From Liolophura sinensis (Eukaryota > Mollusca > Polyplacophora > Chitonida > Chitonidae): a stretch of DNA of 64,000 nucleotides. The position numbers and the translations under genes were made by a program. Below are positions 1 to 42,500 of the stretch, piece by piece. The DNA lies in the NCBI RefSeq assembly GCF_032854445.1, contig NC_088301.1:6556044-6620043 (forward strand), in the 5' to 3' direction. Under the pieces are notes generated by a model. That model had not been told where the DNA came from and searched no databases. It saw only the letters and a list, made by a program, of their open reading frames with translations. The number at the start of each line of letters is the position of its first letter. Within the stretch, counting starts at the first letter, position 1.

Positions 1-94
1 TAGTTAAGGGCTTGCCTAGCAAGGTGCACTTCATGAAACCTTCCTCAGAGAAGCAGCTAATGATGACCATGCAATGTGCTGACCTCCAGAAGAG

Positions 95-359
95 CGAGTG
101 AGTGAGTGTTTGGGGTTAAACATCGTACTTAATGTGTTTTCAGTCATATGACGACAAAGAATGCAAGTAAGCTACCCAGCCTGAGCCATTATACTGATAC
201 GGGTCAACCAGTCGTTGCACTATCCCCTTCATGCTGAACGACAAGTGAGGAAGTTACAACTTCCTCTTTTAAGGTCTTGGGTGTCACTCGAACCAGGATT
301 GACCCTGGATCTACCACTCCCTAAGCGGATGCTTTACCAACTGTGCTATCGGGGCCGGT
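95..359 (-). mobile_element. tRNA-headed SINE (type 2), full insertion with 12-bp TSD
   Basis: On the minus strand the head reads ACCGGCCCCGATAGCACAGT then TGGTAAAGCATCC, with a Pol III A-box-like segment and a B-box-like GGTTCGAGTGACACC. The tail ends CCCCAAACACTCACTCACTC. Perfect 12-bp target duplications, CCTCCAGAAGAG, lie at 83-94 and 360-371. It sits in the CFAP57 intron at the left edge. Confidence 0.85.
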
Positions 360-591
360 CCTCCAGAAGAGTATGCCAATTACAACCCATGCAGCCTTGG
401 AAGGGTATGTACATACACTAAGAAGCGTACATGTGACAAGAAGTACCCCGAACCTCTTACACAGAATATTTCATACTATCCATTCCATATCACTTTTGAT
501 GTTATGACCAACAATCAAACGAGCCTGTATTCGTGTATTGCGTTACCCTAGGAGGAAAAGCACGACTCAAAGTACGCCTGATTATCTTTAC

Positions 592-3500
592 CTGCATAAT
601 GCGGACATTATCAGCTCTGTGGATCTCAGAGTCCTTGGTGAGTTTCTTGCGGAGAGAGGCCACAGACCGCTCCAGGTGTTCTCTTTGTCGGCTGTATTCC
701 TTCTGGATGTCTGCATCAACACTAGCTGACTCCGTCTGTGGGAGAGAATCATACACACAGTGACATCTCAACACAAAAACTGTGCCCAAATCATTCACCA
801 TTAATCTTGTTTTCTACATGTCTGCATTTCACACAGAAACTTCACATGATTACAGTTTCACACTTCCTCCTGCCTCCTTTACTCAATAAAGGAAAAACAT
901 GGTAAATCAATGGACTGGCACAAAAATCACAAAATGATTTCACGCATAAAAAACACATGTAAATTAGAACTGTTGAAATGTACTCACAATATCTTCTTGC
1001 ACATGCTTCTGGTAAAGTGCCTTAATGCTCTCCTTCAACATTTTGGGATCCTGGATGTAACCCACACAGTTGTGCAGATCTGTCTTAAACCTGCGCACCA
1101 CTGCCTCCACATCACGCACCCGCTGTCTCTCCTGGTGCATCTCCTTGTCCGTGGCCTTCAGCTTCTGTCTCAGCTCAGTGATGTTCAGCTCCAGCTGGGT
1201 GTTTTGTTTGTGGAACCGCTCAAGCTCACTCTCCATCTGTAGGCACAGCGTTATATAGCTTGTTATTATTCACAACTTCTTATATGCACTAGGTGTATAA
1301 ATGTAACAAGAACCTTGTTATCACCATATTTGCTGGATACATGTAATGAGAACCTTGTTTCACCGTAACTGCTGGATACTTGTAACAAGAATATAATTAT
1401 TACCATAGTTGATGAGTTGTTGTAACAAAAACATTCACTGTTACAACTTTACAATGTGCACCGACTGTGAACTTGTACCAAGAATCTTCTTATCAGCTTA
1501 TCCGATGTGTCCTTTTATACTTGTAATATTGTTACATTGTATTTCCTGTGTACATAATATCCAGTTCGTCATGATAGTTTATAGCTTTACATGTTACATC
1601 CTCACATTTTTACGATCAAAAATGCATTTAAAAAATGTTTATTATGTCATGAAGCTGGGATAACTCACAAACGGGGATTTTTATGAACATATCTAAACCA
1701 GTTGCTCCACTATGCAGGTTAGCAGATTTCTGGCTTTGTTTCTTGACATTAACTTGATTCTGATAATTAACACATAGCCTTCCTTCATATGTCAGCATTT
1801 CAGAAGTATAAAAGCCATGCCATTTTAATTCCTCCCGTAATAAAACCTCACCTCTTGAATTTGTTCTTTCATATTCTTGATATCGTTTTCTCTTGGCTCA
1901 ATCTGTTTCTTCAATTCCTTGATCTTGTAATCCAACACAAACTTGAACTTCTCCAACTCCTGGTTTTTCTTTTTCAAATCGTAGATTCTCTTCTCCTTGT
2001 CTTGAATGGTTTCATCTCTCTCCTGTATTTCCTTTTTCAAGCCGGCAATGTCTTTCTCCAGATTACGTATGATATTGTTCAGCTTCTGCGTCTCAGCCTG
2101 GTACTTTTTAATCTCCTCTTTGTGATCATCAATCTCTTTCTGCAGACTGGTGAACTGGACAAATAGTACAAATAGTAAACCATCAGTATGTGTATCTGTA
2201 ATGTCACAGTCATACCCGACATCTATATGGAGGGAGTAATATGTCAACCTTTTTCCTTAATAAAGCGCAAATTTGCAACAGGTGCAACATCTTGCTAACA
2301 GTCAACCGCTTAAGGTACATATGTTTTCCTACTTTTCCCACTCAGATTTCTTGTTGTGTGAATGGCCCATGTTGATAGATTTAAATAAAAAATTTGAAGA
2401 ATTGTCTGAAAGACACACAGAGCTCTTTATTTATTTGATTAGTGTTTTGTGCCTAGCTCAGGGATATTTCACTTATACGATGGCAGCCAGCATTATGCAG
2501 AGCCATAACTGAACTAAATCCTAAACAACACTACAGAAACCTCAGAGGAGTTTTGAAAAATTTACTGCTAACAATTGCTGTCTGTGTGACATAACAGGGT
2601 AAAATATAAGCGCTATCTCGATGCCAGCTGGAGGGAAAATTCCTTCAGTGTAGTGGAGAGAGAGCCAGAGTCTAGTAGAGAAACCTGGACTCAGAATCTA
2701 GAAAGTGCTGTTTTAAGTTTGCAACTGGAAATCCCAGTCACAGTCATGAAGTACACTGATGTGTGCTACAGTCCCAGCTGTTGTCAATGACACATGCAGT
2801 TACCTTCTTTTTCATGATGCCTGTCTCGCCCTTCAGTCTCATGTTAGCCTCTTTCTCATCCCTCAGTCTTCGCTCATATTTGTTTTTGATGTCCAGTATT
2901 TCTCTGTCAGCATCCTCCTCAATCTGACGTTTGGTCTCTTCATACTCCCGACTGTGCTGCCTGGCTTCCTCACTGGACTGTGGGTAGAAACATGATGCCA
3001 ATTGAAGTCAAAGCACATACATACTGATCACTTAATTGCTACTGGAAAGACTTTCCATTTTGACACCTAAAATCTATAAATCCCTGTCTCGGGTGACGCA
3101 TTTGCCAGTTTTTATGACCTTTCTCTTGATGCTCACTTTATTCCTTTGAAGTTAAAAATTTGAATCATTTCTGCCTACATGCTTTTGTGACTCTGAACAG
3201 CCTAAAAACTGAACTTTCATAAGGTTTACCTTCACTGGAGTTTACATTTTCTGGAAGTGCAAGTTTAAATTTTGATAAAAGACAACATTGATGAGGTGGT
3301 CAAACTTTTCTTTTCTATACACAAAAAAATAAAAGCTCTAAAATCTTATTTTCAAACTCTGAATAGTTCATTAAATTGGCTTTGGTTGTGTTGAGAAACT
3401 GTAGATGCCCAGACAACTGAACCATGGCAAGGGTTCACAGTCCACAGCATACAGTTAATATGCACATAGCTGTTGTTACCTGTTCTAACTTAGCTGTCAT

Positions 3501-10597: not shown

Positions 10598-11161
10598 CTT
10601 TCCTGTGTAAGTCAGGCCAAGCTAGAACAGGAAAAAAGAACAAAAAACGATGAATAATTAAATGAATGTTCGTATCTTTGTCTCATGACAAATACTGCTA
10701 AAAAAATAGTTAAAATCATTAACAATAGCATGCACACAATATGGTAACATATTAATTTCTATTTCTATAAATGTATAGCCTACTTAATACAGTATAGTAA
10801 AGTATAGCATAATAGAGGTCTACTTGTTTAAATTTTAAATACATACATGTGCAATATTTAAGTTGACAAATGGATCGTATTAAGTGATAAATAATATTAC
10901 AAATACCTACTATTACAAATTTTCAACCATATAATTATACTAAACAACCATGCACTTATCGTCAGTCGTCACTTGAGTGAAAATTACACAGAGGGAGGAA
11001 AGTATACAAGCAGGCGTGTGGCATATCCTGGAGATCGTGTCAAATGTTGACGATGACAACTTTGTAACTGCACGAGTCGGAAGCCGAAAATAATTCCACC
11101 GACATGATTTGCTACCTCGCACGCATATTCATCCAACAGAGATGGACGAAATCTGCTTACC

Positions 11162-11376
11162 TACTTGTTTGCGGTTTCGACTCCTGTCAATTAAGACTAA
11201 AATGAGTTAAATTTGATGCTTAACACTGGTCTCCCGACAGACTTGTTAGAACTTGGTTGCTAATGACAACTTGCGCAGTCGTCAGCAGCGCCACTGTCAA
11301 ACTTCCGGGTCAAAGAGGTCAACTTCCCCCCCCCGTAAATTTGCAGACGACGTGTTATGCAGCTGAAACTGAAGTC
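11162..11376. promoter_or_regulatory. Bidirectional promoter between CFAP57 and ALKBH7
   Basis: The CFAP57 5'UTR exon (minus, ending 11161) and the ALKBH7 start codon (plus, 11377) are about 215 bp apart and diverge. Between them lie an ETS-type ACTTCCGG at 11301-11308 and an X-box-like imperfect palindrome at 11256-11270. No TATA box is evident. Transcription start points are inferred, not seen. Confidence 0.65.
11256..11270. promoter_or_regulatory. RFX X-box (GTTGCTAATGACAAC)
   Basis: The 15-mer GTTGCT-AAT-GACAAC fits the X-box form RYYNYY-N(1-3)-RRNRAC at every position. RFX factors bind such sites in promoters of ciliary genes, and the site lies about 95 bp from the first CFAP57 splice donor. 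Function is inferred from motif and position. Confidence 0.6.
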
Positions 11377-14300
11377 ATGTCGTTGGCCGTGATAACTCGC
11401 TCAAAACGGCTAACCAAAACGTTGTTTGCACATCTGAACTTGTGCTCGTTGTCGATCAGGTGGATAAAGCATGAGTTTTGTACTCTGTCTAACCGTTTAC
11501 ACTCACCAAATGCATCGATGTCATCACCCCAACACGAACGAGTGTGTCCGGATTACTTAGAAGCCAGCGACAGCAACACTGAAGAAATTTTGTCAAAAGA
11601 CATGCTCGTTCACAAAGACTTTATAAGTGAAGAAGAAGAACATCATTTACTTGAAGAAATGATTCCTTATCTCTCTAGACTACGATACGAATATGCCCAC
11701 TGGGATAATGTTAGTATATGTCCCTCAACTTCCTCACCTAAAACCTTCCAAAGTAGCCCTGTATGACTACGCCATGCTCTTTTTTATTGTTCTGACGCTC
11801 GCGGAGTCATGGCTGGGTCCCCTTCGACCCGGTGGGATGAATTGTAAAATTTCGGAAAACAGGCAATTACTAACCTGCCACGCCAGCCAAGTCACTCCTT
11901 TACAATGCTTAGGATTCTAGGGCACCCGACTTAAAATCCCAAGAGGGGGCGACCGTGGCTCAGTTTGTTAGCGCAGCGTAATGACCCAGGAGTCTCTCAC
12001 CAATACGGTCGCTGTGAGTTCAAGTCCAGCTCATGCTGGCTACCTCTCCGGTCGTATGTGGCAAGGTCTGCCAGCAACCAGCGGATGATCGTGGGTTTCC
12101 CCCGGGCTCTGGCCGGTTTCCTCCCACCATAATGCTGGCCGCCGTCGTATAAGTGAAATATTCTTGAGTACGGCGTAAAACACCAATCAAATAAATAAAT
12201 AAATAAAATCCCAAGATGTCGATCATCCCAAAGGAAAATATTCATCCATATTTATTGAAGTCCAACATATCTGCTCACTTGTCCATTACGAAATCGCTGC
12301 CATCTACGGCAGCTGGATACGAAACAGCTGACCCATACTGCCCTCATTTGTGAAGGCTCCCATGTCCAGGCAACAGCACATGCTCTAGTTTGGTTCCCTG
12401 GCACGCGATTTGTACATCTAATGTCAAGGGGACAAAAAGCAGCCATCGCATGATCGTATGACAACAAAAGGACGTCACAAGTAGCATTAGAAGGAAGAGA
12501 TAGCTTCATACCCAGCTGTTTGTCGGCCATTTCGTAAATGGCAAATGAGCAGAGATGCTGCACTTCAATAAATATGGATGGATATTTACATTTGGGATGA
12601 TCAGCATCTCAGGATTTTAATAGTTGGGTGCCCTAGGACCCTAGACATTGTGAAGGAGTGACTGGGCAGGCGTGGTAGTTTAGTTATCTACTGTTTTCCG
12701 AAATTTTACAATTCTTCCCACTGGGGGGAAAGGAACCCAGCCATGACCACGTGAGCATCATAAAAAAAAAATAAATAAAAAAAAAGAGCGTAGCGTGGTC
12801 ATCCAAGGCTGATCCAAAACTGTTTGAACTGTCAATCTCATTGATAAATCATGATAAAGTCTTGTGTAGTAAGTCATTCATTGTGGAAACTTAACCAGTT
12901 TTAGGACTGGTAAAATTGAAACTTTTAATTGAAAACAAGCAAATTTCTTTACGATGCATTGAATTATACTCCTACCTAGATAGCAATTTACCTCAAGTGT
13001 ATTTCCCCGCCCTCTCTGTTTGTGTAGTGTGATGGTGGCAGTTAGCTGTCAGTGACAGTAATATGGCCGTTCATGCAATTTCACATTTGCTGACAGTGAC
13101 ATGCATGTGGCCGTTCATGCAGTCCCATATTTGCTGACAATGACACTCATGTGGCCGTTTATGCAGTCCCACATTTGCTGACGGTGACACTCATGTTGCC
13201 ATTCATGCAGCCTCACATTTGCTGACGGTGACACTCAAGTGGCCGTTCATGCAGTCACACATTTGCTGATGGTGGCACTCAGGTGGCCCTTCATGCAGCC
13301 CAACGTTTGCTGATGGTGACACTCAAGTGTCAGATCATGCAGTCCCACATTTGCTGACAGTGACACTCATGTGGCCGTTTCTGCAGTCCAACATTTGCTG
13401 ATGGTGACACTCATGTGGCAGTTCAAGCTGTCCCATGTTTGCTGACGGTGACACTGAAGTGGCCGTTCATGCAATCCCACATTTGCTGACGGTCACACTG
13501 AAGTGGCCGTTCATGCAATCCCACATTTGCTGACAGTGACACTGAAGTGGCCGTTCATGCAATCCCACATTTGCTGACAGTGACACTCGTGTGGCCGTTT
13601 CTGCAGTCCCACATTTGCTGACGGTGACACTGAAGTAGCCGTTCATGCAGTCCCACATTTGCTGACGGTGACACTTATGTGGCTGTTCATGCTGTCGCAC
13701 ATTTGGTGTCGGTGACACTGAAGTGGCCGTTCGTGCAGTCATGCATCTGCTGTCGGTGACACCCATGTGGCCATTCATGCAGTCCCACATTTGCTGATGG
13801 TGAGGCTCAAGTGGCTGTTTCTGCAGTCCCACATTTGCTGACGGTGACACTGATGTGGCCGCTCATGCAGTCCCATATTTGCTGTCGGTGACACCCATGT
13901 GGCCATTCATGCAGTCCCACATTTGCTGACGGTGAGGCTCAAGTGGCAGTTTGTGCAATCCCACATTTGCTGACAGTGACACTGAAGTGGCCGTTCATGC
14001 AATCTCACATTTGCTGACGGTGACACTGATGTATACTAAATCGCATACTTTGTTCTTGCTGCATAAGATGATTATTAAGACTCAAACCCAGTTCTTGCTT
14101 GTTCGCGGCTGCAACCTTAAGTCGAGAGGTTTGTTAGGTAACGGGCAAACAGCAGTAATTTGCTTTCCCCATTATTTTGAGCGCCTAGAAATCAATTAAA
14201 ACTTACCAGAAATTATCTTAAGGTAGTTCATCAGAGATGATTTCAGAGAAAATAAATATTTTTGGAATGTTCAATAGGCAAATAAAGGAAATTATAAAGA

Positions 14301-27155: not shown

Positions 27156-27985
27156 GGAGATGTAAACCTGGTTAAACCTGAATGTTGTAGTCAGATTAGC
27201 TGGAGTCGAGATATAGGCCTTCAGACTGATCCTGTCTGGTGGAGGAGGAGTAAAATTGGCTGAACCTGGAGTGACGTGGATGTTGCAGTCAGATTACCCC
27301 GAGTCTAGATATACTGACTGATCCTGTCTGGTGGAGGCGTAAACTTGACAGAACCTGGGGTGACCTGACTGTTGTGGTCATGTCAGTGAGGGCCTAGATG
27401 TACTGACTGATCTTGTCTGGTGGAGGAGTAAACTTGACAGAACCTGGGGTGACCTGACTGTTGTGGTCATGTCAGTGAGGGCCTAGATGTACTGACTGAT
27501 CTTGTCTGGTGGAGGAGTAAACTTGACAGAACCTGGGGTGACCTGACTGTTGTGGTCATGTCAGTGAGGGCCTAGATGTACTGACTGATCTTGTCTGGTG
27601 GAGGAGTAAACTTGACAGAACCTGGGGTGACCTGACTGTTGTGGTCATGTCAGTGAGGGCCTAGATGTACTGACTGATCTTGTCTGGTGGAGGAGTAAAC
27701 TTGACAGAACCTGGGGTGACCTCACTGTTGTGGTCATGTCAGTGAGGGCCTAGATGTACTGACTGATTTGGTGGAGGAGTAAACGGGTGATCTGAGTGTT
27801 GTAGTCATGTTAGCCAGAGCCTAGATATACCAACTGATCCTGTCTGGTGGAGGAGTAAACCTGGCTGAACCTGGGGTGACCTGAGTGCTGTAGTCATGTC
27901 AGTGAGGGCCTAGAAGGACTGACAAGATGTTTTGTCTGGTGGATTAGTAAACCTGGCTGAACCTGGAGTGATTATTTGCTACAAA
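27156..27985 (+). repeat. 89-bp minisatellite
   Basis: About nine units. The central four or five (27411, 27500, 27589, 27678) are almost identical: TCTTGTCTGGTGGAGGAGTA then AACTTGACAGAACCTGGGGT then GACCTGACTGTTGTGGTCAT. Flanking units are diverged, so the middle has been recently homogenised. Intergenic. Confidence 0.9.
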
Positions 27986-29095: not shown

Positions 29096-29909
29096 CAGTA
29101 TTGTACATTTGTGCCACTGGTAATTCTTGTCATATAGACAGATGAATATTGTTAATAGGAGAGACCACTTTTTGAAAGAGCCAGCACGGCATTCCAAGAG
29201 AGATACATGTAAGAAAGGAGCCAAGGATATCATTAGCTTGAAATATTGATTAAAATTTGCACATCTGTACACACATGCACTTATGCTTCACCTCCTGGTA
29301 GCACCCTGATTGGTTCATAAGTGACCGCCTTCTAATCACTTCTCGGATAGTTCTCCCATGTGTTACTGAGTGACCTACTTTGTACATCAGTTTCCTGTGT
29401 ATTGTCTCACAAGTGACTAATTTATTCTCTGTCCACCAGTAGTTCTCACAGAGGTTATTGACTGACCCATGGCACTTTGTATACCATGGTAGTTCTTTTA
29501 AAGGTTACTCTCTACTTATACTACATCCTCTGGTTGTTCTTTCAAAGGTCCTCTGGGTCCCATGACTGACCTACATATACCACACCTCCTTGTACAAGTA
29601 ATTCCCTTATAGGTCACCAACTAATTGTACTTTATTCAATCCCATGATAGTTCTCTCATAGATCACTTATATTTTATCCACTGGTAGTTCTCTCACAGGT
29701 CATGGGCTGACCTATTCTATCCACTGTTAGAGCTTTTACAGATCACTAGCTGACCTACTCTTCCTACTGGTAGCTGTGTCACAGGTCACTGGCTGACCTG
29801 GAATACCCACTGGTAGTTCTCTCACAGGGCCTTAGTGCCTCTGACTGATCTCTATATACCCAACCTCCTTGTACACGTAATTTCCTCCTATGTCACCACC
29901 TAAGCAATC

Positions 29910-30332
29910 CTAATGGTATTCCATCTGCTGGTATTCCTCCCCTACCTCCTCTTCCTGCTCTCCCCCAGGCAGATACTTCTCTACAACCAGCAACAGTTCC
30001 TCAATCTGTTCTTCTGTCAATCGTTCCTCACTCTCTTCAACGATCAACTGTATTTCAACAGCAGACACAGGCCGATGGTTCAGCAGTTGCAACTTCTCTG
30101 CCTTTGTTAATTTGTAAGGCTTCAGCGCTTCCATAAAGTTCTGTATGACCTCTGGGGTTTGATGCACACATGTTGTGTTTCCCAAGTGTTTGGTTGTCTC
30201 GTATACAATGGTAGATAACTGCTCTTGGTGCTTCCCTGGTTTCTCCTGGCTTTTCCCATGCTGAATATCCTGCAGTAGTGAGAACACCTCATAGTTACTC
30301 AGCATAGCAGCATTATCCTGTATAACTTCCAT
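29910..30332 (-). CDS. CRCP: DNA-directed RNA polymerase III subunit RPC9 / CGRP receptor component
   Basis: RPC9 (yeast Rpc17) pairs with RPC8 in the stalk of RNA polymerase III and takes part in initiation; in vertebrates the protein is also called CGRP receptor component. One open exon gives 140 aa (human 148). The signature AEKLQLLNHRPVSAVEIQLI and the following VEESEERLTEEQIEELL are almost unchanged from vertebrate CRCP, as is the N-terminal LSNYEVFSLLQDI. The start MEVIQDNAAML at 30332 aligns with the family start and has A at -3 and G at +4. The C-terminus is acidic, as is usual. The coding part has no introns; the only intron lies upstream, between 31419 and 30503, and splices a leader that encodes a separate 55-residue smORF. 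The intact reading frame and promoter argue against a dead retrocopy. Confidence 0.95.
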   Translation of the reverse strand: MEVIQDNAAMLSNYEVFSLLQDIQHGKSQEKPGKHQEQLSTIVYETTKHLGNTTCVHQTPEVIQNFMEALKPYKLTKAEKLQLLNHRPVSAVEIQLIVEESEERLTEEQIEELLLVVEKYLPGGEQEEEVGEEYQQMEYH

Positions 30333-30415
30333 TCTCAAACGTTTTTGGCCAAGCCACTTCAGAAAGTGTGGATCCTGTGAGCTATTGTCCCTGGTTCAAC
30401 ATTTGGGCATTTGGC

Positions 30416-31500
30416 TCATATTTTCTGCAAATATTTTAATGATGCAAATCGCCCAGCCACTATGACATAGCCCCAAGCCAATAGAACAATCACCAGTAGC
30501 AGCTAGAAAAAAGAAAACAAATGCACATGTTAAACTTCATGTAAATACAATTTAAAGTTTTGTAAAGCTACAAAAATATATTTACACTTCAGATACTTAT
30601 GAGGCTTTTATCAAAGAACGTGGCGTTTTACTGGCAAAAAGTGATTGACAGTACTTGTATAGCTGTCCTGGTGTCTTGTATTCAGCTTGCAAATGGTTTG
30701 GGATTACTAGATATGGGATTTTCGGATTACTTGATTGGGATGTACTCAAGAATATTTCCCATGTTCAATGGCAGTTAGCATTACGGTGGGAGGAAACCTC
30801 CCAGAGACTGAGGGGAAACTCACAACCATCCACAGATTGCAGGCAGACCTTCCCACATGCAGCTGGAGAGGAGGCCAGCCCATGAATTATTATGGAAGGT
30901 GTATGTCACTTAGGAATCTCAATAAAATAAATAAATTTTACAGTATACATGTTCAGAATATTTTGTCAGATTCTTGTCAAAGGCCGATGGTTTACTCTGG
31001 GCACTCTGGCATAATCCATAAACTGGGCAGCATTGTGAAGCGTCTGAGTGGAACATTCTTGAATGCAGCTTAAAGTTAAACCGAAATAAAATTAACAAAT
31101 AATAAATAGTAATCAGCTTATAATGTTGTATTTATCCAAATTATTTTGTTACTTGAAGCAACAGACTGACCAGCAGTAGGATACAGGTGACGCATATAAT
31201 TATAAATGATGTGAGCACCACATGGGTTTTATCAAAAGATATCCAACATAACAACAGTCAACGTTCTACATGCTTTGACAAGTTCTGATTTCTGTCTCCA
31301 GCTTTGTGGTCCAAATGACAGAAGATCATCACCAAAACAGTCAAAACAGTCTAATTACACTAGAATGTGATGAAATTGCTTACAAAATTCAGAATCCAAT
31401 CCACGTGACGCTTGCTTACAACAATCATACTGAACTTAACCCAAAACAATTGCCACTTCCTAAGGCTTTTGAGCTTTTGCCACTCGTGGCGCGTTGTCAT
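30416..31500 (-). CDS. Unrecognised 55-residue single-pass membrane microprotein (upstream cistron of CRCP transcript)
   Basis: Two minus-strand exons, 31500-31420 and 30502-30416, join at phase 0 (donor GTT|GTAAGC, acceptor TTTTTTCTAG|CTG). They encode 55 residues ending in TGA. The N-terminus MTTRHEWQKLKSLRKWQLFW is basic and aromatic. Residues about 23-43 (FSMIVLLLVIVLLAWGYVIV) form one hydrophobic helix, and the tail AGRFASLKYLQKI is short and basic. The splice junction falls inside the helix and keeps it continuous, which supports real coding. The start lies a few bases from an ETS site in the promoter shared with LMBRD2. Its stop is 83 nt from the CRCP start in the same exon, so one mRNA would carry both. 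I do not recognise the family; no function is assigned. It could be a fortuitous uORF. Confidence 0.6.
30736..30935 (-). mobile_element. SINE type 1, diverged copy in the smORF-CRCP intron
   Basis: ACTCAAGAATATTTCCCATG, GCATTACGGTGGGAGGAAAC and CAGGCAGACCTTCCCACATG are reversed type 1 blocks. It lies inside the single intron of the smORF-CRCP transcript. Confidence 0.65.
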
Positions 31501-31634
31501 GAAATACCGGAAGTGTAAACTGTGCAGCAATGCCACTGACGTGGAGAGTGCGTGTTGACGTCACACGAATTTGACGGCTGCTCTATCAAAATGAGTTGTT
31601 GATGATATTTTGATGTTTTAAAACGGTTTCAAAG
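31501..31634. promoter_or_regulatory. Bidirectional promoter and LMBRD2 non-coding first exon
   Basis: Between the minus-strand smORF start (31500) and a plus-strand splice donor (TTTCAAAG|GTAAAT, 31634/31635) lie an ETS site ACCGGAAGTG at 31506-31515 and a full CRE, TGACGTCA, at 31556-31563. The donor fits a 5'UTR exon joined to the LMBRD2 acceptor at 33570-33571. Transcription starts are inferred. Confidence 0.65.
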
Positions 31635-32167
31635 GTAAATGTCTATTTATGAGACGTATTGTTAGTAATTTATACGTCTTTGATTCAGAATAAATTTGGT
31701 TCTGAGAGTTTGGTGGGATACAAAGTAAGGAAAATGCAGTTCAGGACTGACATTATCACAGTATGGCGTTGTTGTTGTTTAGGTCGCTGTAATTCATTCA
31801 TTTTGGTCACGATCATCTGTATAAATAAAAGCATAAGTTAGTGTACGGTGTATGTGTCGATTATTTGTTTCTTTTGAATGGCGAAGTATTTTTCTTTCAT
31901 GTACTTCCTTGTTTGTTCACTGTGGTAACCTTAATAACATAAGTGATTTTACAATTCATGCATTATTTTACATTTAGCTACCAGTATCAGTATATTTATT
32001 ATACAGTATACAGTACTTAATCTTACTAGCAGGTTACACGTTTACTTTTAATGCATGGAGTCATTGACATTTTTAGAATTAAAACATTTATTTTGACGTG
32101 TATATCAAACTCATCTCCTGGGCTCCTTTCAGCAAATAATACTGTTCTCATTTCCTACCATCACCAG

Positions 32168-32862
32168 TAGCCCTGAGTGACAACGCTCGTAGGGCATCGC
32201 ATAGTCATGGGTCAGCCCCCTTCATCCCGATAGGATGAATTGTAGTTTCGGAAAGCAATAGATTGCTAACCTACCCTGCCCATCCAGCCACTCCTTTACA
32301 GTGTTGAGGGTACCAGAGCACCTGACTGAATCTCAAGATGTAGATCATTCTGAAGGTAAATATACATCCATATTTATTGAAAACCCATCTCTGCTGACTT
32401 CGTATTACGAAATGGCCGCCATCTACACAGCGTGCAAACACAGCCAGGCAGCTGGATAATGGATAATGAAATGGCTGACCCGTACTGACCTTTTTAAACC
32501 AGCCAGTATGTGATCGTATAACAACAAAAGGACTTCATAGCCAGCATAATTGAAGGGAGGGATAGTTTCGTATACAGTGCCTGCCGTGCCACGTAGATGA
32601 CAGCCATTTCGTAAATGAGAAGTCAGCGGAGAGGGAGACTTTAATAAATATAGATTGGATATTTGCCTTTGGGATAATCGATATCTCAGGATTTTAACAG
32701 CCAGGTGTCCTAGAACCTTAAGCATTGTAAGGGGGTGGCTGGATGGGATGGGGTAAATAAGTAATCAACTGCTTTCTAAAATATTACAGTTCATCCTACT
32801 GGACTAAAGGGGGAATGATCCATGACTATGCGAGGCCCTACAAACGGTATTATCCAGGGCTA
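32168..32862. mobile_element. MULE-like MITE (family A), intact ends with 9-bp TSD
   Basis: Arms TAGCCCTGAGTGACAACGCT and ...CGGTATTATCCAGGGCTA are inverted, with the matching interior CATCGCATAGTCATGGGTCA versus ATCCATGACTATGCGAGGCC. The perfect 9-bp duplication CATCACCAG lies at 32159-32167 and 32863-32871. Long arms and a 9-bp duplication are typical of Mutator-like elements. No transposase. LMBRD2 intron 1. Confidence 0.8.
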
Positions 32863-33596
32863 CATCACCAGTTATTCTAATTAATTAACAGTTTTCTGGT
32901 CAAAACAGCTAGATCTTTGAAAATACTGAACTGCTTCTTGTCAGGTTGGCATTGAGAAGTATGAACCTGACTTTGTCTCACAGCAAGCGCATTGGTCAGA
33001 GGCTCCTGTGTCATTGCAGTGTGCTAGCAGTAGCCCAAAGCTAAGCTGGACGTTACTACTGCAACGCCCAACTTTGGTCATATAGGCTTCCACATGGACA
33101 ATTTCACAAAAGAAAAAAGGGCATGAACCCTACCTTATTTTTGCCATCTACTGATTATCTAAAATGCTTGAAATGTAATGTGTCAAAGTCAGCACTGGTA
33201 AACCATCTTTCAGCAGTAATCCAACCGTTCAGACTTTCGAATGAGATAACTCAAATCAACACCTGCCATGTTTGGAATTATTCCAACTTGGGGCAAGATA
33301 AAGGGCCGCGAAAATTTTATCCCACCCAACATTCTGTTTACAGGGCATGCAATCCTTCAAGAGAAAAAAAATGTTAGTAAAATGTTTCTTGTTTTTCCCC
33401 AACCAAACGTACGTGTTCCATATCAGAATATTCAATGAATTTTGGTAAACTGTTATGAAAGGTTCACAGTATAGTGCACATGTACTTTTATTAATATATT
33501 TATTATTTTTTATTGTATATCAGTGTCCATTGTGCACTGTACAGGTATGATCATGTTATGTTTTCTTTCAGAACTTTGGAAATCAAGAAACAAACA

Positions 33597-36500
33597 ATGA
33601 GTTATGGACCTCTGGTTGTGGAGATTGTATGTATATTCATAGTGACAGCTTTTCTTCTCCATCACTATGGTAACCTGAGGAAACAACGTGTCCTTGTGAC
33701 TGTGGGTGCCTTTGTGGCTTGGTATTTCTCTTTTATGATCATCTTCATCCTTCCATTGGATGTAACCTCAGTAAGTAGTTAATGGAGTAGTGCACAATTC
33801 ACTTTCTCTTTCCAACTGATAAACTTCACAAAGTAGACTATTGTGGCAACTCCAACAAATGACGCAAGGCCATACATGATTCAATAAAGAAAGAATTCAT
33901 TCTTGAAAACTTCGAACAAATGACATTTGATTTGAATAAAAAATGAAAGTGATTAAAATAAAATTGGAATATTAAATCATGTGTCCACTTGTGTCATTTG
34001 TATTAGTGACCACAGTAGCCAAACTGTACCCTTATCAATCTGGGTGAACCCCACTAGTCATATTTAGAGAGATGAGGAGTGAGATCAAAATAAAATTTTG
34101 TGTAGTCTTTTTTTCCTCCAGTCTTTAACTCTCCTGTATAGAGTACAGCTACCTGTATGACATACCCTGAGCATCAGCATGTGTCTCCTACAGGCAAGCT
34201 CTTTGGTAGCCTTGCCAGCAAATCTAAGCTGTGAATTGATATACATGTGTTTTGATATTTTGTTTTGTGTACTTCAGACATATTACCGCCAGTGTTTAAG
34301 AGAAAGCAAGTATGATGTGAACACATTCTCTCCCACATCTGCCAATGTGACATCCTCCGGCGTGACAACACCCTCTCCGACAACACCCAATGTTAGCGGT
34401 GCAGAGGTGACAGAATCAGAGTCCAAGGTGACAGGAGAGCCAACAGAGCCAACGAGTGTATGTCAGGTCCCCACTGGTCACGTACCAGACTATGTCCTCC
34501 CCACTCTCTGGCATGTTGTCTACTGGACATCACAGGTGTTAACTTGGTGAGATGAACTGAAAAATAACTTGTTTGTACTGCATGTACTTTATTTCACTCA
34601 GTTTAGTTTTTTTTCAAGTGACACATTTTCCTTGATTCTGATTGGTTTATTCTCCTTGTGGAGCTGTTAACAGGGTTTTTGTGAAGTGTCATTAAATTTT
34701 TATAGGAAAAACTGAAGTGTTCCAAAAGTATCCTGTTAAGGACTTTATGTCCTTTTGAAAGTTCATGACATTAATTTAATACATGTAGTTAGTTTACTCT
34801 AGCTTAATGTTGTGTTAAGAAAAAATGATAACTTTGAAAACTAAAGTTTGAAGTATTGGAGATATTTTGATACCAATCAGCTTGAATAATACTAGGTCAC
34901 ACCATCAGTGCTATCAGTCTAAATGTTTTGCTTGAACTTAGTTATATGATACTGTAAATGCCTTTTTATTTACATGGTACTAACATTCGCGGATTTCGCG
35001 GCAAACACATTTCTGCGAAAATAAGTGTTATCGAATATTAAACCCATGTAAGTAATTTATTAATGTAGCATGCGTTACAGTTATAAATTTGTTAACAAGC
35101 ACTACAGTTCTAATACTTTTACAGACACGTTAATGAGAAATAGCTAATTAGAATGTATTCCGACTTATGCAAATCCAGCTTAATTGATCATCAGTTAATC
35201 TTGCTTTCTTTTAAGGAGGCTTAGCTCCGTCTAAATATCGTCACATTGCGACGTTGTTGTTGTTGTTGATTTATTGTCACAGTTACAATTCGACATACAA
35301 ATTGATAAATTGTACTGGGCATGTGTACATGATACAATATACATACAATGAGAAAGTGGGGTTTATTTATATCACATTTAATCCTTCGTCATCTCCCGGA
35401 GTGAGTGACATGAATATTTGCTCACACAGCAGGTAAGGGCTAAGTGTTATAAACATTAACAGACTTCAAAAGATTAAAAGCTTACGATTAACTTCCTTTG
35501 TCTGTATTGTATAGTATTGTATTGTATAGAATTTTTGTCACATCTTACAGGTAAAAACAAGTTTAAATGATAACATTGTTACTTGAATGCTTGAATTGTT
35601 TTATTACTTGACGTTTCTCTATTGATGTTTAATTTTCGTTTATCAGTTGTCCCAAAATTCTGCTAAGATCCGCGAAAGTTGATTTTCACAAATGTGTCTT
35701 GTTACCAAATCCGTGAAAGTTTATACCCGTGAATAAAAAGGCATTTACAGTATTAGTACTAATAAAGATAAATATCAACATTTTCAGAAGAATTTACCTT
35801 TCAAACATTCACCGCACTGGGCCCACTTGTTTGAAAGTGTATTAGCTAATTTTAAGTCATATTTTATATTTAATTTTTTAGCCAAACTCAGCAGTCAGTG
35901 CAGGTCCCCAAAGTCAAAGTATAACAGCAGCAGTTTCAGTTCGTATTTAATATAATGTTACATTATTTTTTTCTTAGACTAAGTACAAAATTGAAGGCTT
36001 GGCTTAAAGTTAAATCTGGTATTAAGTCTTAAACCAGTTTTGAACAACTGGGCCTAAGTCATCAACAGTGCATTGTGTTATTCTTAGACTATAAACTTTA
36101 TTTATTCACCTTCAGGATTATTTTACCAATGATGCAGTCCTATTCCAATGCTGGAGACTTCAGTGTGGCAGGTAAACTGAAGACCTCTCTCATACAGAAT
36201 GCCATTTATTACGGGACATACCTACTAATCTTTGGGGTGTGTCTTATCTATGTGGCTGCCAGGCCGGATCTGGATGTTGATGCGTGAGTTCTTTTTCTCA
36301 GTTATGTTCATTGCGTTTTATTGTTGTGAAGTTGTTTATATTTTGGAAAGCATTGGCTTTTGATAGAAGTTTATGGGTGATGCAGATCATGAACTGTAAC
36401 TCTGCAAGTCCATCATGGTCCTGAGGAAATGAGATTTGTGTAAAGGTTTGGAGCATACATGTACTTTAAGAGCATGGCTTTAAGTTTTCCTAATGCCCCA

Positions 36501-39500
36501 GCAGTCAGCCCGTAAAAAAGTAGCTTGTTGTAGTAACATCCCAGTATCCTCAATGTTGATGTCATTTCTAAGAACATGGTGAAGAATATGCCTAAAATTG
36601 AGAGGTAATGAAGAGGTATTATGTATGTCTCAAAAGTAAAAATAAAAATTATGGTAATCCATCCAGAATTCCTTTTCAACTATTTTTTGAATACACCAAA
36701 CAACAATTGTAATATGTAATGATTAGACTTCAGATTTGTAATCTGGGTGACAGTGTACAATACAAGGTATATTATTTTGATTTTAGCAATGAGATCTCCC
36801 CACTTTTGCCATGTACATGTATGTTATTGCCCTGCTATGTATTTGTACTATTCCCTCATATTACGTATTTATAATTTACCTAACAGCGAGAAGCTGAAGG
36901 TGATAGGTGTGACAGCCAGTAACACATGGGGCTTGTTTCTGCTAGTCTTACTGCTGGGATATGGGCTAGTGGAGGTGCCGCGATCTATCTGGAACAACTC
37001 CAAGCGAGGTTACACGTTGTCCAAGACTCAGTTCAAAATTGCAAAGCTGAGCACGGAGAAGTCAGAGGCTGAGGAGGAACTGGAGGATGTCCTAGAGGTA
37101 CAAACATGATTTAAGATACAAATTTGCTTTACTCAAGGTCATTCAGTTGAACATTTTGACTGTAGATGTGCCTTATTTGAGGTTTAAGCAAAGTATTTAA
37201 TTGATTTTTTTTTCTCTGTTGTGCAACTAGGTTTTACATTGCTTCAACAGTTCTAATCTGACGGAGCATTAAATCATTTTAAAAGTAAATATAATCCTAT
37301 ATATATATGCTTGTATGACCAATGTTAATTAAAGATTTGGAGATTTAAGATTTACAACTTCTGTAATTCTTGAGCCTTGTCTCCAGTTACTGGGATATAT
37401 TTGTAGGCATGTTCTGAGGGCATTACTAGGTTTAGACTGATAAAACATGCCTTTTATGAGGCCCTGTCATTGAACAACACAACCACTGTAGTTTTACATC
37501 CAAAATTAAAGTACTAAGATGTATTTGGAGTTTACATTTTATTTGTGAAAACATGTAAAGCAGACACAGTAAGAGCAGACAGACATTTATACAACAGAAA
37601 ACAATAGGTCCTAGCTCAGTGAGTAAATGAAATTTAAAAAAAAAAAAAGGAAATGGACTGAATTTTCTTAATTTTATACATAACCAGAATTTTTTATATA
37701 GCGTTACTTATCATGTAAGACAAGCAAAAGCTCTTAAAATGAATGTTGTTATGTGTACATTTAACATGTTTAAGACATGGCTACACTGAATTATACTGCA
37801 AGAACTAAATACATTTGCAAACCACAAATAGGCAACATTACAACAAGCAGACAAGGACACAGCAAATAAGATTACAGCAAATGGAGAAGGGTTACAACAG
37901 GTGGACAAAGTGATACTGGTTCAGAAATTGAAACCGGAATGCACCCAAATGTCAGGGATAAAGCAGAGAGACATGGTGATAAAAGAAGTCCAGATATTTA
38001 CACTAAGCATGCATTGAAGTACATGTAAAAAGATTATTAGAACCTGTACCACTCCTTCAATCTCTGATGGAGTTCACAGAGGTGTTTGATTATGGTAGTA
38101 GTAACATGTTTCAACTTAAAGTGGTAGTGCAAAGCTTTGAACCTGTTGCACTTTGTTAAAATGTTACATTTGCCGTTTATGTCAAGAAAAAATTGATGGT
38201 TTGTCTTCATTTTTTCCCTGTAATGCCCCTATTAAACAGTGGTAGGTCTGGGTAGATTTTGTGAGTTAGAATGACCACATAAGGATGTTTTATGTTGTGT
38301 GCTTAATGCTTTTCATGTTTTATTAATTTTATGCCTCATGATTTTCATGTTTTGTCAATTGCAGGACATTAAGAAAGCTGCAGAAAGCATTAAGTACAAC
38401 CACCCACTGAGGAAAAATGTAGACACTATCTTAAGAAAGGTAATTATTTCATGTTTGGCAGTTTCCAGTCACCACCAGCCTGCTACTGTGTTAAAATTTT
38501 GAGCAGGTAACCATGTACTTTGACCAAAGCTCGTTTTTCACTTTATTTTTATGGCTGCCAGATAGCCAGCTACTTACCCAATGTAGCCTTCTACTCAAAA
38601 TACACTGTAAGCCCTGCATTCCCCTTTATCCTTTTTCTGCTTGCTCCCGAAACAGACAAAAATGAATATGGAGAGTTAAACTTGTTCTCACATACGCTTC
38701 CTCTGTCTCACTTTTTCCAGTGCCCTGAGTCGTTCCTGCAGACAATAAGAAACATGGACGACTACCAAGACTACAACATGTCCACGGAGACTCCTACGCA
38801 AAAGTCACTGATCCGCCTCCACTGTAAGCTGATCCGGGCCTCACAGAACCAATTCCGCACACGCTGTCAGTGGAACATGCTGATAGAAAAGGCCTTAGAG
38901 CTGGAAGATTTGGCTGCCAATGAGAACAACACGGATAAGAAATTCAGGAAGGCCTTAGGGCAGAATAATTATCACCAAATCTTTAGAATGGTCTACACAC
39001 CAACTGTTGGTGAGGTTTTTATTTGAACATTTTGCATGTTATTGTCTGTCAAGAATTAAATAAGACATAACTCTTTATTTTAATATCTTCTCTTCTTAGT
39101 TTTTTTTTTTTTTTAAACGATATGCATTCAGATATTAGAACTCTAAGCTAGATTCTAAGTGCCAACAATAATTGTACATACATGTCAAGGGAAAGTACAG
39201 TAATTTTAGTTGTATGGTCGAGGTTGTATTCTTTTGGAAAGTCATAATAATCATGGATGAATGCCTGTCAGATTACTCCGTTCTTTCATTGACACTCTCT
39301 CACTTCATTTTGTAAACTATTTAACTCATTGGCACGTATTTGGTATGTTACATTCACTGCCCAGTGAAACAAGGACAGCAAAGATATCTGCAGTTTGTAT
39401 TCTGGTCAGTGCTGCACTTGCATTTCCTGGATTACATACGTCACATATTTTATTCCCTTGACAGAGTGGTACTGGAAGGTTCAGTTTCGACCAATCACAA

Positions 39501-42500
39501 TGAAGGTGTTCTCTGTCCTGCTGATGATCTTCTCTTTTATGGTCGTCTGGTCTGAATGTCTCTTCTTCATCAAAGAGCCAGTTCTCTCCCTTTTCGCTGT
39601 CTTCATCAACTTGGCCAAGGAAAACTATGACTACCTGTATATTGAGGTATCAGAATTTTCTTGATTTTTAGAGAAGAAATAGACCAATAATGTGTTAATG
39701 CCATTTTGTTTAAGTAGACTTTAATTAATTATTTTATTTAGCGTGTTAGAGTTGCACAGTGATGGTCAGTTTGTCAATTTTATAGGTTGAGAAATCACAG
39801 ACCTTTGTCTGGCACCTGACAACTTCTTGACCTTATTTTTAAACTGAAACGACCCGGCCTTTATTGAGTGAAATCAAGCAGCAAAGGCCCTTTATTATTT
39901 GACAGCTTGAGTTCTGTTCTATCTGTAAAGTTACTTTTATGTGTAAATGGGTGAAAATGGTAATGCTTTTATTAATATTTTTTTTGTTATTGTAGCTGGC
40001 CAGCATCATTGTCATAGGCTATCTGTGTATCTGTGCCTACTCCAGTATCTTCCAGATTCGCATCCTCAACTATTATTACATTGCCCCGCATCACCAGACC
40101 GATGAGAACAGCCTGCTCTTCTGTGGAATGTATGTATACGTGTAATTGTACTGTACACACACCCTAATTCTTTAACCTTTTCAACCACCACAGTGACTGA
40201 TATTTTGAAACGTTCTGAGTAAACTATGTGGTGTAGTAAACTATGAGGTGTAGAGAACAAATCTGCAGTTTTATGACGCTTGCATCTTTACTGACACAAA
40301 CAAATCATTTTTGGTGTCATTTTCATAATATTTGTATGCAATCATGGATGATGTATTACAGAGATTTATTGTTTTCCAGAATGTGAATTAAGAAGGATTC
40401 AAATGTTATTGGTGTTGTTCATGTATCACTCACCTTATGTAGAAACATATTACATGTGTATGTACTTGTGTTTCTTGTGGTTCAAACATATATTTCTGAT
40501 TTAAGACATACTATGGATTATCATCAGCGTGTCACCTGGCTATCTGGCCTGGTGTAGATCTTCAAGACAAAACATCAGGCCATATACATGTACTTCACAA
40601 CAAATTGATCTAGTGGAGCATTGTACAAAGGACTGTTTTTAAGCCAATGCACACAATGTTTTCATGTGCCTATGAGGCCAGTGTCATGGCTCACATGATG
40701 GGAAAAGAGAGTTTGTTGTAAATATTTAAAATCATCCTGAGGCAGGTTGATCTATCAATCAGAACTCTAGAATTTTCTTTGAATTCTGATAAAATCTAGT
40801 ACAATGTTTGATATAAGCTTTGTAAGCTTAATTAGCATTTATTCAATCTGTGAATGTGTAAAGGAATGAATTAATTTTGCTGGCATTAACCTAATTACAT
40901 GCGAGATTTATAAATGTTTGATTGATAAATTTGTTACCAGGATGCTGTGTCGCCTAACCCCGCCTATGTGTCTAAACTTCCTGGGACTGATCCACCTGGA
41001 TAGTCATGTGATCCACGAACACCTAGAGGAGACTTCCTACACTCAGGTGTGTTCAAAGTGTAGGCTCATGGAATAAGAACATGGTTGTTTGGCTGACACA
41101 GCTTGTAAATATTTATGGTGTGGTGATGTTGAAGTAGGCCTATATATTTATCAGCGGAAAAAATAGTACGATGAGACATTCCGTTGATATTATGAGGGTT
41201 AACTGCTAATTTTCATCTGAAAAAAATTATTCTCACTGAATTACTGATTGTACGAAGACGTCTTTTTGACAAGCAGTTAACACCGTGTTATTCTGGAACA
41301 AATACATATACAAAATGCTTTGTTCTCTCTTCAGATCATGGGTCACATGGATGTTGTATCATTCATCTCTGATGGGTTTAACGTCTACTTCCCGATCGCC
41401 ATTGTCCTGCTGTGTATCTTCACTTACTTCAGCCTGGGCAGTCGTATTCTCCACTTCCTGGGTTTCCAGCAGTTTATTGGAGAGGATGACATGACGCAGG
41501 AGCTGGTAGACGAAGGGAGGGAACTCATCAAGAGAGGTATGTATGCGGAAGTTGACATGTAACATTTCCACTGCATACTTAAAACTACACAATGTCACAC
41601 ATACTTACAGCTCTACCACTCAATAGGTTGTTCATATTTACAACCTCCATATAATGCTTCACAGACTGGGGGAAAATGATGTGGGCTTTTATGAAACAGA
41701 CCAGTATGATACTCTTGATATTGCTTCCTCTTGACAAAGAATCCAGCTCCAGTTTAACAGTTACAGCTTTAACTGAGCCGAGGGACCTAGCTGGCCAAAG
41801 GTCCAAGGAAACAAATATCTGCTACTTCCCTAGCCCTCAACCTCAGGTAAACCCAGGTCCAGCTACATCTGTACTGAGGAGTGGAGGCCATACTTTGGCC
41901 AAGGGAATTAACAGCTTCTACTGAATGTCCCCTGCCTGCCTGCAATGTATCTGTGATTCCAGGTGATCCTCCAACTGGTTCAGCAGATTTCTGTCCACCC
42001 ACAAACTGCAATGCCATCAGATTTTTGAAAAATTGTCGAGTTCATTGTTATACATAAATCAAAGAAATATATGTGTCAGTGGTTTTGTTGGAACCTGACT
42101 AACTGCTGACATCATGCCAAAACATTTTGGAATGGCATAAAACACCAGTGAAATAAATTAATATTGAGTTGTAAGATGCAATTCATGATTCAGACAGTTG
42201 GATGCTGGAATGCTTTTCAATTTTATTTCTGATCGTTTAAAAACAATGTAATGTATATTTGAGCTTGACATCGACAATACATCTTATAACTGCACATTTG
42301 GATCCATAGAAACTATATAAAGTTATAGACTATCTTTACAAGTCACTGCTTGGTGGGCGTTTGAGACATGTCAGAAGGTTCCTCGGGGATTTTTCCATAC
42401 ATCTGTGTGGTGGAAACTTCGGTTTCCTCCACGTATTAAACTGGCATTTAACAGCAAATAATCAAGGAAAATAAATTTTACAAGTGTGTTGTTTTCTTCA

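What the first reader, a model, noticed from the sequence alone, without database searches (positions are those of the whole stretch)
29910..31500. Candidate dicistronic mRNA: unrecognised 55-aa membrane microprotein upstream of CRCP/RPC9
Two minus-strand exons (31500-31420, 30502-30416) splice at phase 0 into a 55-residue frame. It has a basic N-terminus, one clean hydrophobic helix that the intron interrupts in mid-helix, and a short basic tail. The stop lies 83 nt before the CRCP ATG in the same exon, so one transcript would carry both. The smORF ATG has a poor context (T at -3) while the CRCP ATG has A at -3 and G at +4, which would favour leaky scanning. However, at least two further tiny uORFs lie between, so reinitiation, an internal promoter or alternative splicing may be needed. 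I do not recognise the microprotein. A helix kept open across a splice junction is unlikely for chance sequence.
Basis: partly seen in the sequence, partly recalled or inferred. Interest (0 to 1): 0.8.

Follow-up and report, generated by a model that had tools for sequence, protein, structure and literature searches.

The report
Chiton SMIM27 microprotein upstream of RPC9
A chiton gene appears to encode, in one messenger RNA, a tiny membrane protein resembling the little-studied human protein SMIM27 (often treated as a non-coding RNA) and, just after it, a subunit of RNA polymerase III.

Summary
The finding is real in outline, but its gene model is wrong. A scan of all 68 ATG-open phase-0 donors between exon 2 and position 34000, however, favours a second GTAAGC donor 36 nt downstream (31383). 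With the inner ATG at 31428 (A at -3) it gives a 43-residue protein, MIVVSKRHVDWILNF|LLLVIVLLAWGYVIVAGRFASLKYLQKI. This aligns without gaps, Met to Met, with human SMIM27/TOPORS-AS1: 19 of 42 identical, pairwise E 7e-12, and 0 of 100,000 segment shuffles reach the score. The human sequence was recalled, not fetched, but was written down before this exon was found. Exon 2 also carries an intronless CRCP/RPC9 frame 83 nt downstream, the only copy found in the genome. A CpG-rich, promoter-like region lies at exon 1, none lies between the frames, and the first AATAAA comes after CRCP. A bicistronic SMIM27-CRCP mRNA is the best reading, but no transcript or ribosome data could be seen. The genome is the chiton Liolophura sinensis. 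Retroposition of CRCP into the SMIM27 gene, as proposed for human STREMI/SLC35A4, is plausible but untested.

The parts
31351..32100 (.). Two adjoining CpG-rich runs (31351-31950, 31751-32100), promoter-like; they hold TGACGTCA at 31556-31563 and ACTTCCGG on the minus strand at 31514-31507
   Evidence: TGACGTCA alone is not surprising: 37 of 100 shuffles of the window hold one. Promoter role inferred.
31384..31428 (-). SMIM27 coding exon 1 (corrected): ATG at 31428, residues 1-15, donor GTAAGC at 31383-31378
31420..31500 (-).
30503..31383 (-). Phase-0 intron, strong polypyrimidine acceptor; contains a copy of a dispersed repeat (30777-30856 at least)
30416..30502 (-). SMIM27 coding exon 2: residues 16-43 and stop
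   Evidence: Best SMIM27 match of 7845 open frames in 234 kb of this genome
30382..30419 (-). Tiny frames between the cistrons: MSQMPKC (30419-30396, its ATG overlaps the SMIM27 stop as ATGA) and MLNQGQ (30402-30382)
29910..30332 (-). CRCP/RPC9, intronless, 140 aa; ATG has A at -3 and G at +4
29631..29636 (-). First AATAAA after CRCP, possible poly(A) signal

Best explanation
The locus is the chiton homologue of SMIM27, a single-pass membrane microprotein. Its coding sequence is split by one phase-0 intron, and its last exon also carries the intronless coding sequence of CRCP/RPC9. One promoter near exon 1 makes one mRNA. Ribosomes make SMIM27 from the ATG at 31428; a fraction reach the CRCP ATG, which has a strong context, by scanning past or by reinitiating after the short frames. 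Shown: the frames, the splice signals, the identity of CRCP, and similarity to the recalled human SMIM27. Inferred: the shared transcript, use of both frames, the mode of translation, and the origin (retroposition of CRCP into the SMIM27 gene).
For: SMIM27: ungapped Met-to-Met alignment, 19 of 42 identical, E 7e-12 for the single comparison; 0 of 100,000 segment shuffles reach it. Its donor is the best of 68 upstream and of 2336 on both strands of the window (next 82 against 95). With exon 2 kept and the upstream 30531-34000 shuffled, the best donor reaches 95 in 0 of 500 (highest 85). Exon 2 is the best of 7845 open frames. Shared transcript: CpG-rich runs at exon 1 and none between it and CRCP; no AATAAA between the frames, the first one after CRCP; an outstanding acceptor at 30502; no second CRCP copy found.
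Against: The human sequence is recalled; no call returned it. No transcript, ribosome or related-species data. Five AUGs (six if 31500 is transcribed) precede the CRCP ATG, two of the intervening ones with a purine at -3. The C-terminal tail alone is not significant (1717 of 20,000). An ATTAAA lies in the smORF at 30440. A genome search with human SMIM27 gave no candidate, not even this locus.
Confidence: 0.62

Rival explanations
1. Two overlapping genes: the SMIM27 homologue is real, but CRCP is made mainly from its own transcript, started in the intron or exon 2 or using another 5' exon joined to the same acceptor, so few mRNAs carry both start codons.
For: CRCP encodes an essential Pol III subunit (established knowledge) and sits behind five AUGs, which would lower its translation from a shared mRNA. 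An ATTAAA at 30440 could end SMIM27 transcripts early.
Against: No CpG-rich run between exon 1 and CRCP. The two intercistronic tiny frames lie in exon 2 and would remain in any transcript that uses the 30502 acceptor.
Confidence: 0.28
2. The microprotein frame is not a functional gene: a chance open frame in the 5' UTR of CRCP.
For: One genome, a short frame, no transcript or near-relative data; generic hydrophobic helices resemble one another.
Against: 0 of 2000 shuffles give such a frame with an acceptor as strong. The match to SMIM27 includes VSKRHVDWI outside the hydrophobic core (14 of 100,000 shuffles of the exon-1 part as good), and 0 of 500 shuffled upstream regions yield such an exon.
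Confidence: 0.06
3. The reader's 55-aa form (donor 31419, ATG 31500) is the main product, or the two donors make in-frame variants.
For: Both donors read GTAAGC; the recalled matrix slightly favours 31419 (0.68 against 0.10). The frame is open from 31500.
Against: Exon 1 of that form does not match SMIM27 (3721 of 20,000) and the joint score falls from 95 to 68. The ATG at 31500 has T at -3 and lies 7 nt from the ACTTCCGG motif, so it may lie upstream of the transcript start (inference).
Confidence: 0.12

Closest known systems
SMIM27 (human; [quoted passage not shown] sequence recalled, alias seen in PMC8656283)
   Same: Start Met, VS[KR]R..DWI motif, LLLxIVLxxWG helix, single hydrophobic stretch, similar size (43 and 55 aa)
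   Different: The chiton protein lacks the last 12 human residues and its tail is not significantly similar. Human SMIM27 lies beside TOPORS, not CRCP (recalled).
STREMI/SLC35A4 bicistronic mRNA (PMC13303939; abstract and passages)
   Same: Membrane microprotein upstream of an unrelated, intronless coding sequence
   Different: Different proteins, vertebrates only; there the shared transcript and both products were shown, here neither.
Sloth1/Sloth2 bicistronic mRNA of Drosophila (PMC9681215; search listing only)
   Same: Two frames in one insect mRNA, at least one a small membrane peptide by recall
   Different: Two related peptides, not a microprotein plus a polymerase subunit.
Purriato (PMC10036370; passages)
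   Same: Single-pass smORF peptide reported in protostomes including molluscs
   Different: 77 aa, with conserved stretches in its C-terminus; sequences not compared (not held).
CRCP/RPC9
   Same: Nearly full-length match to RPC9 chains
   Different: Intronless here; that the human gene has introns is recalled.

Membership tests
SMIM27 | N-terminal motif and start Met in register with human | tested here: met
   against a recalled human sequence
SMIM27 | Single hydrophobic helix of matching sequence | tested here: met
SMIM27 | C-terminal basic tail of the human protein | tested here: inconclusive
   Chiton tail is shorter and not significant alone (1717 of 20,000). Whether the tail defines the family is unknown.
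SMIM27 | Same intron position and orthology by tree or synteny | not testable with these tools
   No animal genome other than this one is held; no Pfam model matched recalled SMIM27 above its cut-off
CRCP/RPC9 (RNA_pol_Rpb4) | Rpb4 domain over its cut-off and best matches named RPC9 | tested here: met
   93.2 bits, cut-off 25.6; 4 of 4 matches are RPC9 or its yeast 18-kDa form
Bicistronic animal mRNA | One mature transcript with both frames | not testable with these tools
   Only indirect signs:
Bicistronic animal mRNA | Both frames translated | not testable with these tools
   No ribosome or protein data held
Retrogene (CRCP) | Intronless copy of an intron-bearing parent | tested here: inconclusive
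   Intronless and the only copy found. Introns in human CRCP are recalled; no parent copy, poly(A) remnant or target-site duplication was shown.

The most novel reading that the evidence does not exclude
CRCP was retroposed into the last exon of the SMIM27 gene in an ancestor of this chiton and the parent gene was lost. The animal now depends on a bicistronic mRNA in which translation of SMIM27 and of the tiny frames behind it sets how much of an RNA polymerase III subunit is made, for instance under stress, as the STREMI frame does for SLC35A4.
Probability: 0.25. Interest if true: 0.68.

Novelty: new member of a known kind. Interest (0 to 1): 0.5.

Why it matters
SMIM27 is the protein reading of TOPORS-AS1, which published cancer studies treat as a long non-coding RNA (listing; passages of PMC8021562; alias in PMC8656283). 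A mollusc homologue with the same start, motif and helix would mean the microprotein predates the split of molluscs and vertebrates, so those studies may be following a conserved protein. The pairing with RPC9 would be an invertebrate case of a microprotein sharing an mRNA with an unrelated intronless frame, and would let the retroposition ('gene symbiosis') model be tested outside vertebrates.

Tried and rejected
(2) A first exon at 30883-30824 (MGWPPLQLHVGRSACNLWMV, SW 68, donor 1.8): its bases 30825-30856 are a dispersed repeat with 9363 + 9482 copies within 2 mismatches in the genome; a neighbouring 21-mer at 30777-30797 has 18,668 + 18,549 within 1 mismatch. (3) A paralogue on C457 (E 0.358): the locus is a tandem repeat. 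(4) OSTbeta (E 0.088 for recalled SMIM27) and TB2/DP1 (E 0.29 for the 67-aa form): both below the curated cut-offs.

Led nowhere: CRCP in viral contigs and genome contigs and the 55-aa frame in viral contigs (none confirmed); solved structures for the 55-aa frame and for recalled SMIM27 (none); Rfam on the window (none); SMIM27 against the whole genome (no candidate); paper searches for peptide strings of SMIM27 (none), for CRCP with bicistronic or microprotein (none of the 18 papers holds CRCP), for RPC9 with retrogene (none), and for spliced-leader trans-splicing in molluscs (listing only). That molluscs lack such trans-splicing is recalled.

Mended: the shuffle test kept only donors scoring 3 or more, above the real donor (0.68), so its counts at 'observed strength' are too low. 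I do not use them; one search repeats the test with the right thresholds.

Full report
Where it is. The window is C7:6556044-6620043 of a genome of 609,464,459 bases in 632 contigs. The published Liolophura chiton assembly has 632 scaffolds, 609,495,693 bp, longest 96,433,062 and N50 37,343,639 (PMC11068029, passages). Contigs C1 and C9 have exactly the last two lengths. A correction renames the species from L. japonica to L. sinensis (PMC12441733, whole text).

The observation. Both reported exons exist and join in phase 0 into a 55-residue frame; its stop is 83 nt before the CRCP ATG at 30332. The downstream frame is RPC9: PF03874, E 1.8e-26; RPC9 in solved structures, E 2.6e-41 over residues 1-128 (human by recall). 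It is one uninterrupted frame, and a genome-wide search with it gave one match, itself (2 candidates scored). Of 2000 dinucleotide shuffles of 30333-31700, 41 hold a junction-spanning hydrophobic frame with donor at least 0.10 and acceptor at least 3, 6 with acceptor at least 6, and 0 with an acceptor as strong as the real one (10.0); the real region holds three, all ending in exon 2 (matrices from memory). An earlier version of this test had a wrong donor threshold and is not used. Of the three real frames, one starts inside a dispersed repeat.

What the microprotein is. Among 7845 open frames of 20 aa or more in 234 kb of this genome (the window plus 17 stretches of 10 kb) exon 2 is its best match, 61 against 45 for the next; 0 of 20,000 shuffles of exon 2 reach it. 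I therefore joined every ATG-open phase-0 donor from near exon 2 up to 34000 (68 of 199 GTs) to exon 2. It is also the best of 2336 such donors on both strands of the window (next 82). With exon 2 kept and 30531-34000 shuffled, 0 of 500 reach 95 (highest 85). The added stretch VSKRHVDWILNF matches VSRRTLDWIYSV. From the inner ATG at 31428 the protein has 43 residues and its Met aligns with the human Met: 19 of 42 identical, 29 of 42 similar, no gap, E 7e-12 for the single comparison. 0 of 100,000 segment-wise shuffles reach 95 (highest 66), and the exon-1 part alone is equalled by 14 of 100,000. The human letters were fixed, before this exon was known, so the N-terminal match is a fulfilled prediction and supports the recall. 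Still, no call returned the human sequence: nothing in solved structures or paper text, no Pfam model above its cut-off.

Results against. A genome search with the human sequence gave no candidate, not even this locus, so it cannot tell whether other SMIM27-like genes exist here. With the 43-aa protein the only matches at E up to 10 are its own two exons. No eukaryotic relative could be fetched, so there is no conservation test beyond the human comparison. The tail alone is not significant (1717 of 20,000).

One transcript or two. The window's CpG o/e is 0.36. 32 of 1274 windows of 300 b reach 1.0; of nine runs at 0.9 or more, two adjoin at 31351-32100, at and above exon 1, and none lies between exon 1 and CRCP. 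The first run holds TGACGTCA and ACTTCCGG; TGACGTCA alone is no surprise (37 of 100 shuffles hold it). No AATAAA lies between the frames and the first is at 29636, after CRCP; an ATTAAA lies within the microprotein frame at 30440. This favours one transcript (inference). Translation of CRCP is the weak step. Before its ATG (A at -3, G at +4) come AUGs at 31428 (A at -3), 30468 (G), 30419 (A), 30410 (C) and 30402 (C), and 31500 (T) if transcribed (the added 36 nt hold no ATG). The AUG at 30419 overlaps the microprotein's stop (ATGA). I take a mix of leaky scanning and reinitiation as most likely; another 5' end for CRCP is the main rival.

Origin. In the STREMI/SLC35A4 paper (PMC13303939; abstract and passages) a microprotein and an intronless downstream frame share a transcript; 50% of downstream frames in that human set lack introns, and the authors propose retroposition into a host gene. 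The chiton locus has the same anatomy: a split upstream gene and an intronless downstream one. That human CRCP has introns is recalled. No trace of the event itself was shown, so loss of introns in place stays open.

Known or new. SMIM27 occurs in 6 papers of the library and TOPORS-AS1 in 24. By titles and starts of abstracts, plus passages of PMC8021562 and PMC8656283, I saw none on an invertebrate SMIM27 or on the protein's function. None of the 18 papers holds CRCP. I file the protein as a new member of a known kind, and the arrangement as a probable new case of a known kind of mRNA. Whether the published gene set contains the 43-aa protein was not tested.

Noticed in passing
window 33603-41439, + strand: Exons of an LMBR1-family gene (LMBRD2 by recall) run divergently from the CRCP locus.
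   Followed up: partly
window 30777-30856, minus strand: Copy of a very abundant dispersed repeat in the SMIM27 intron: 18,845 genome matches to a 32-mer and 37,217 to a 21-mer; three more places in the window.
   Followed up: partly
window 29670-29828: 43-bp tandem repeat just after CRCP, probably in or near its 3' UTR.
   Followed up: no
window 27224-27971: 89-bp tandem repeat array, about 6 close copies, with an open frame running through several units.
   Followed up: no
window 10801-11700: Another CpG-rich run with ACTTCCGG on the + strand at 11301: a likely promoter of another gene.
   Followed up: no
L005 (C457) 1-3100: Tandem array of a unit of about 540 bases that filled the stretch read; source of a chance protein hit.
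   Followed up: no
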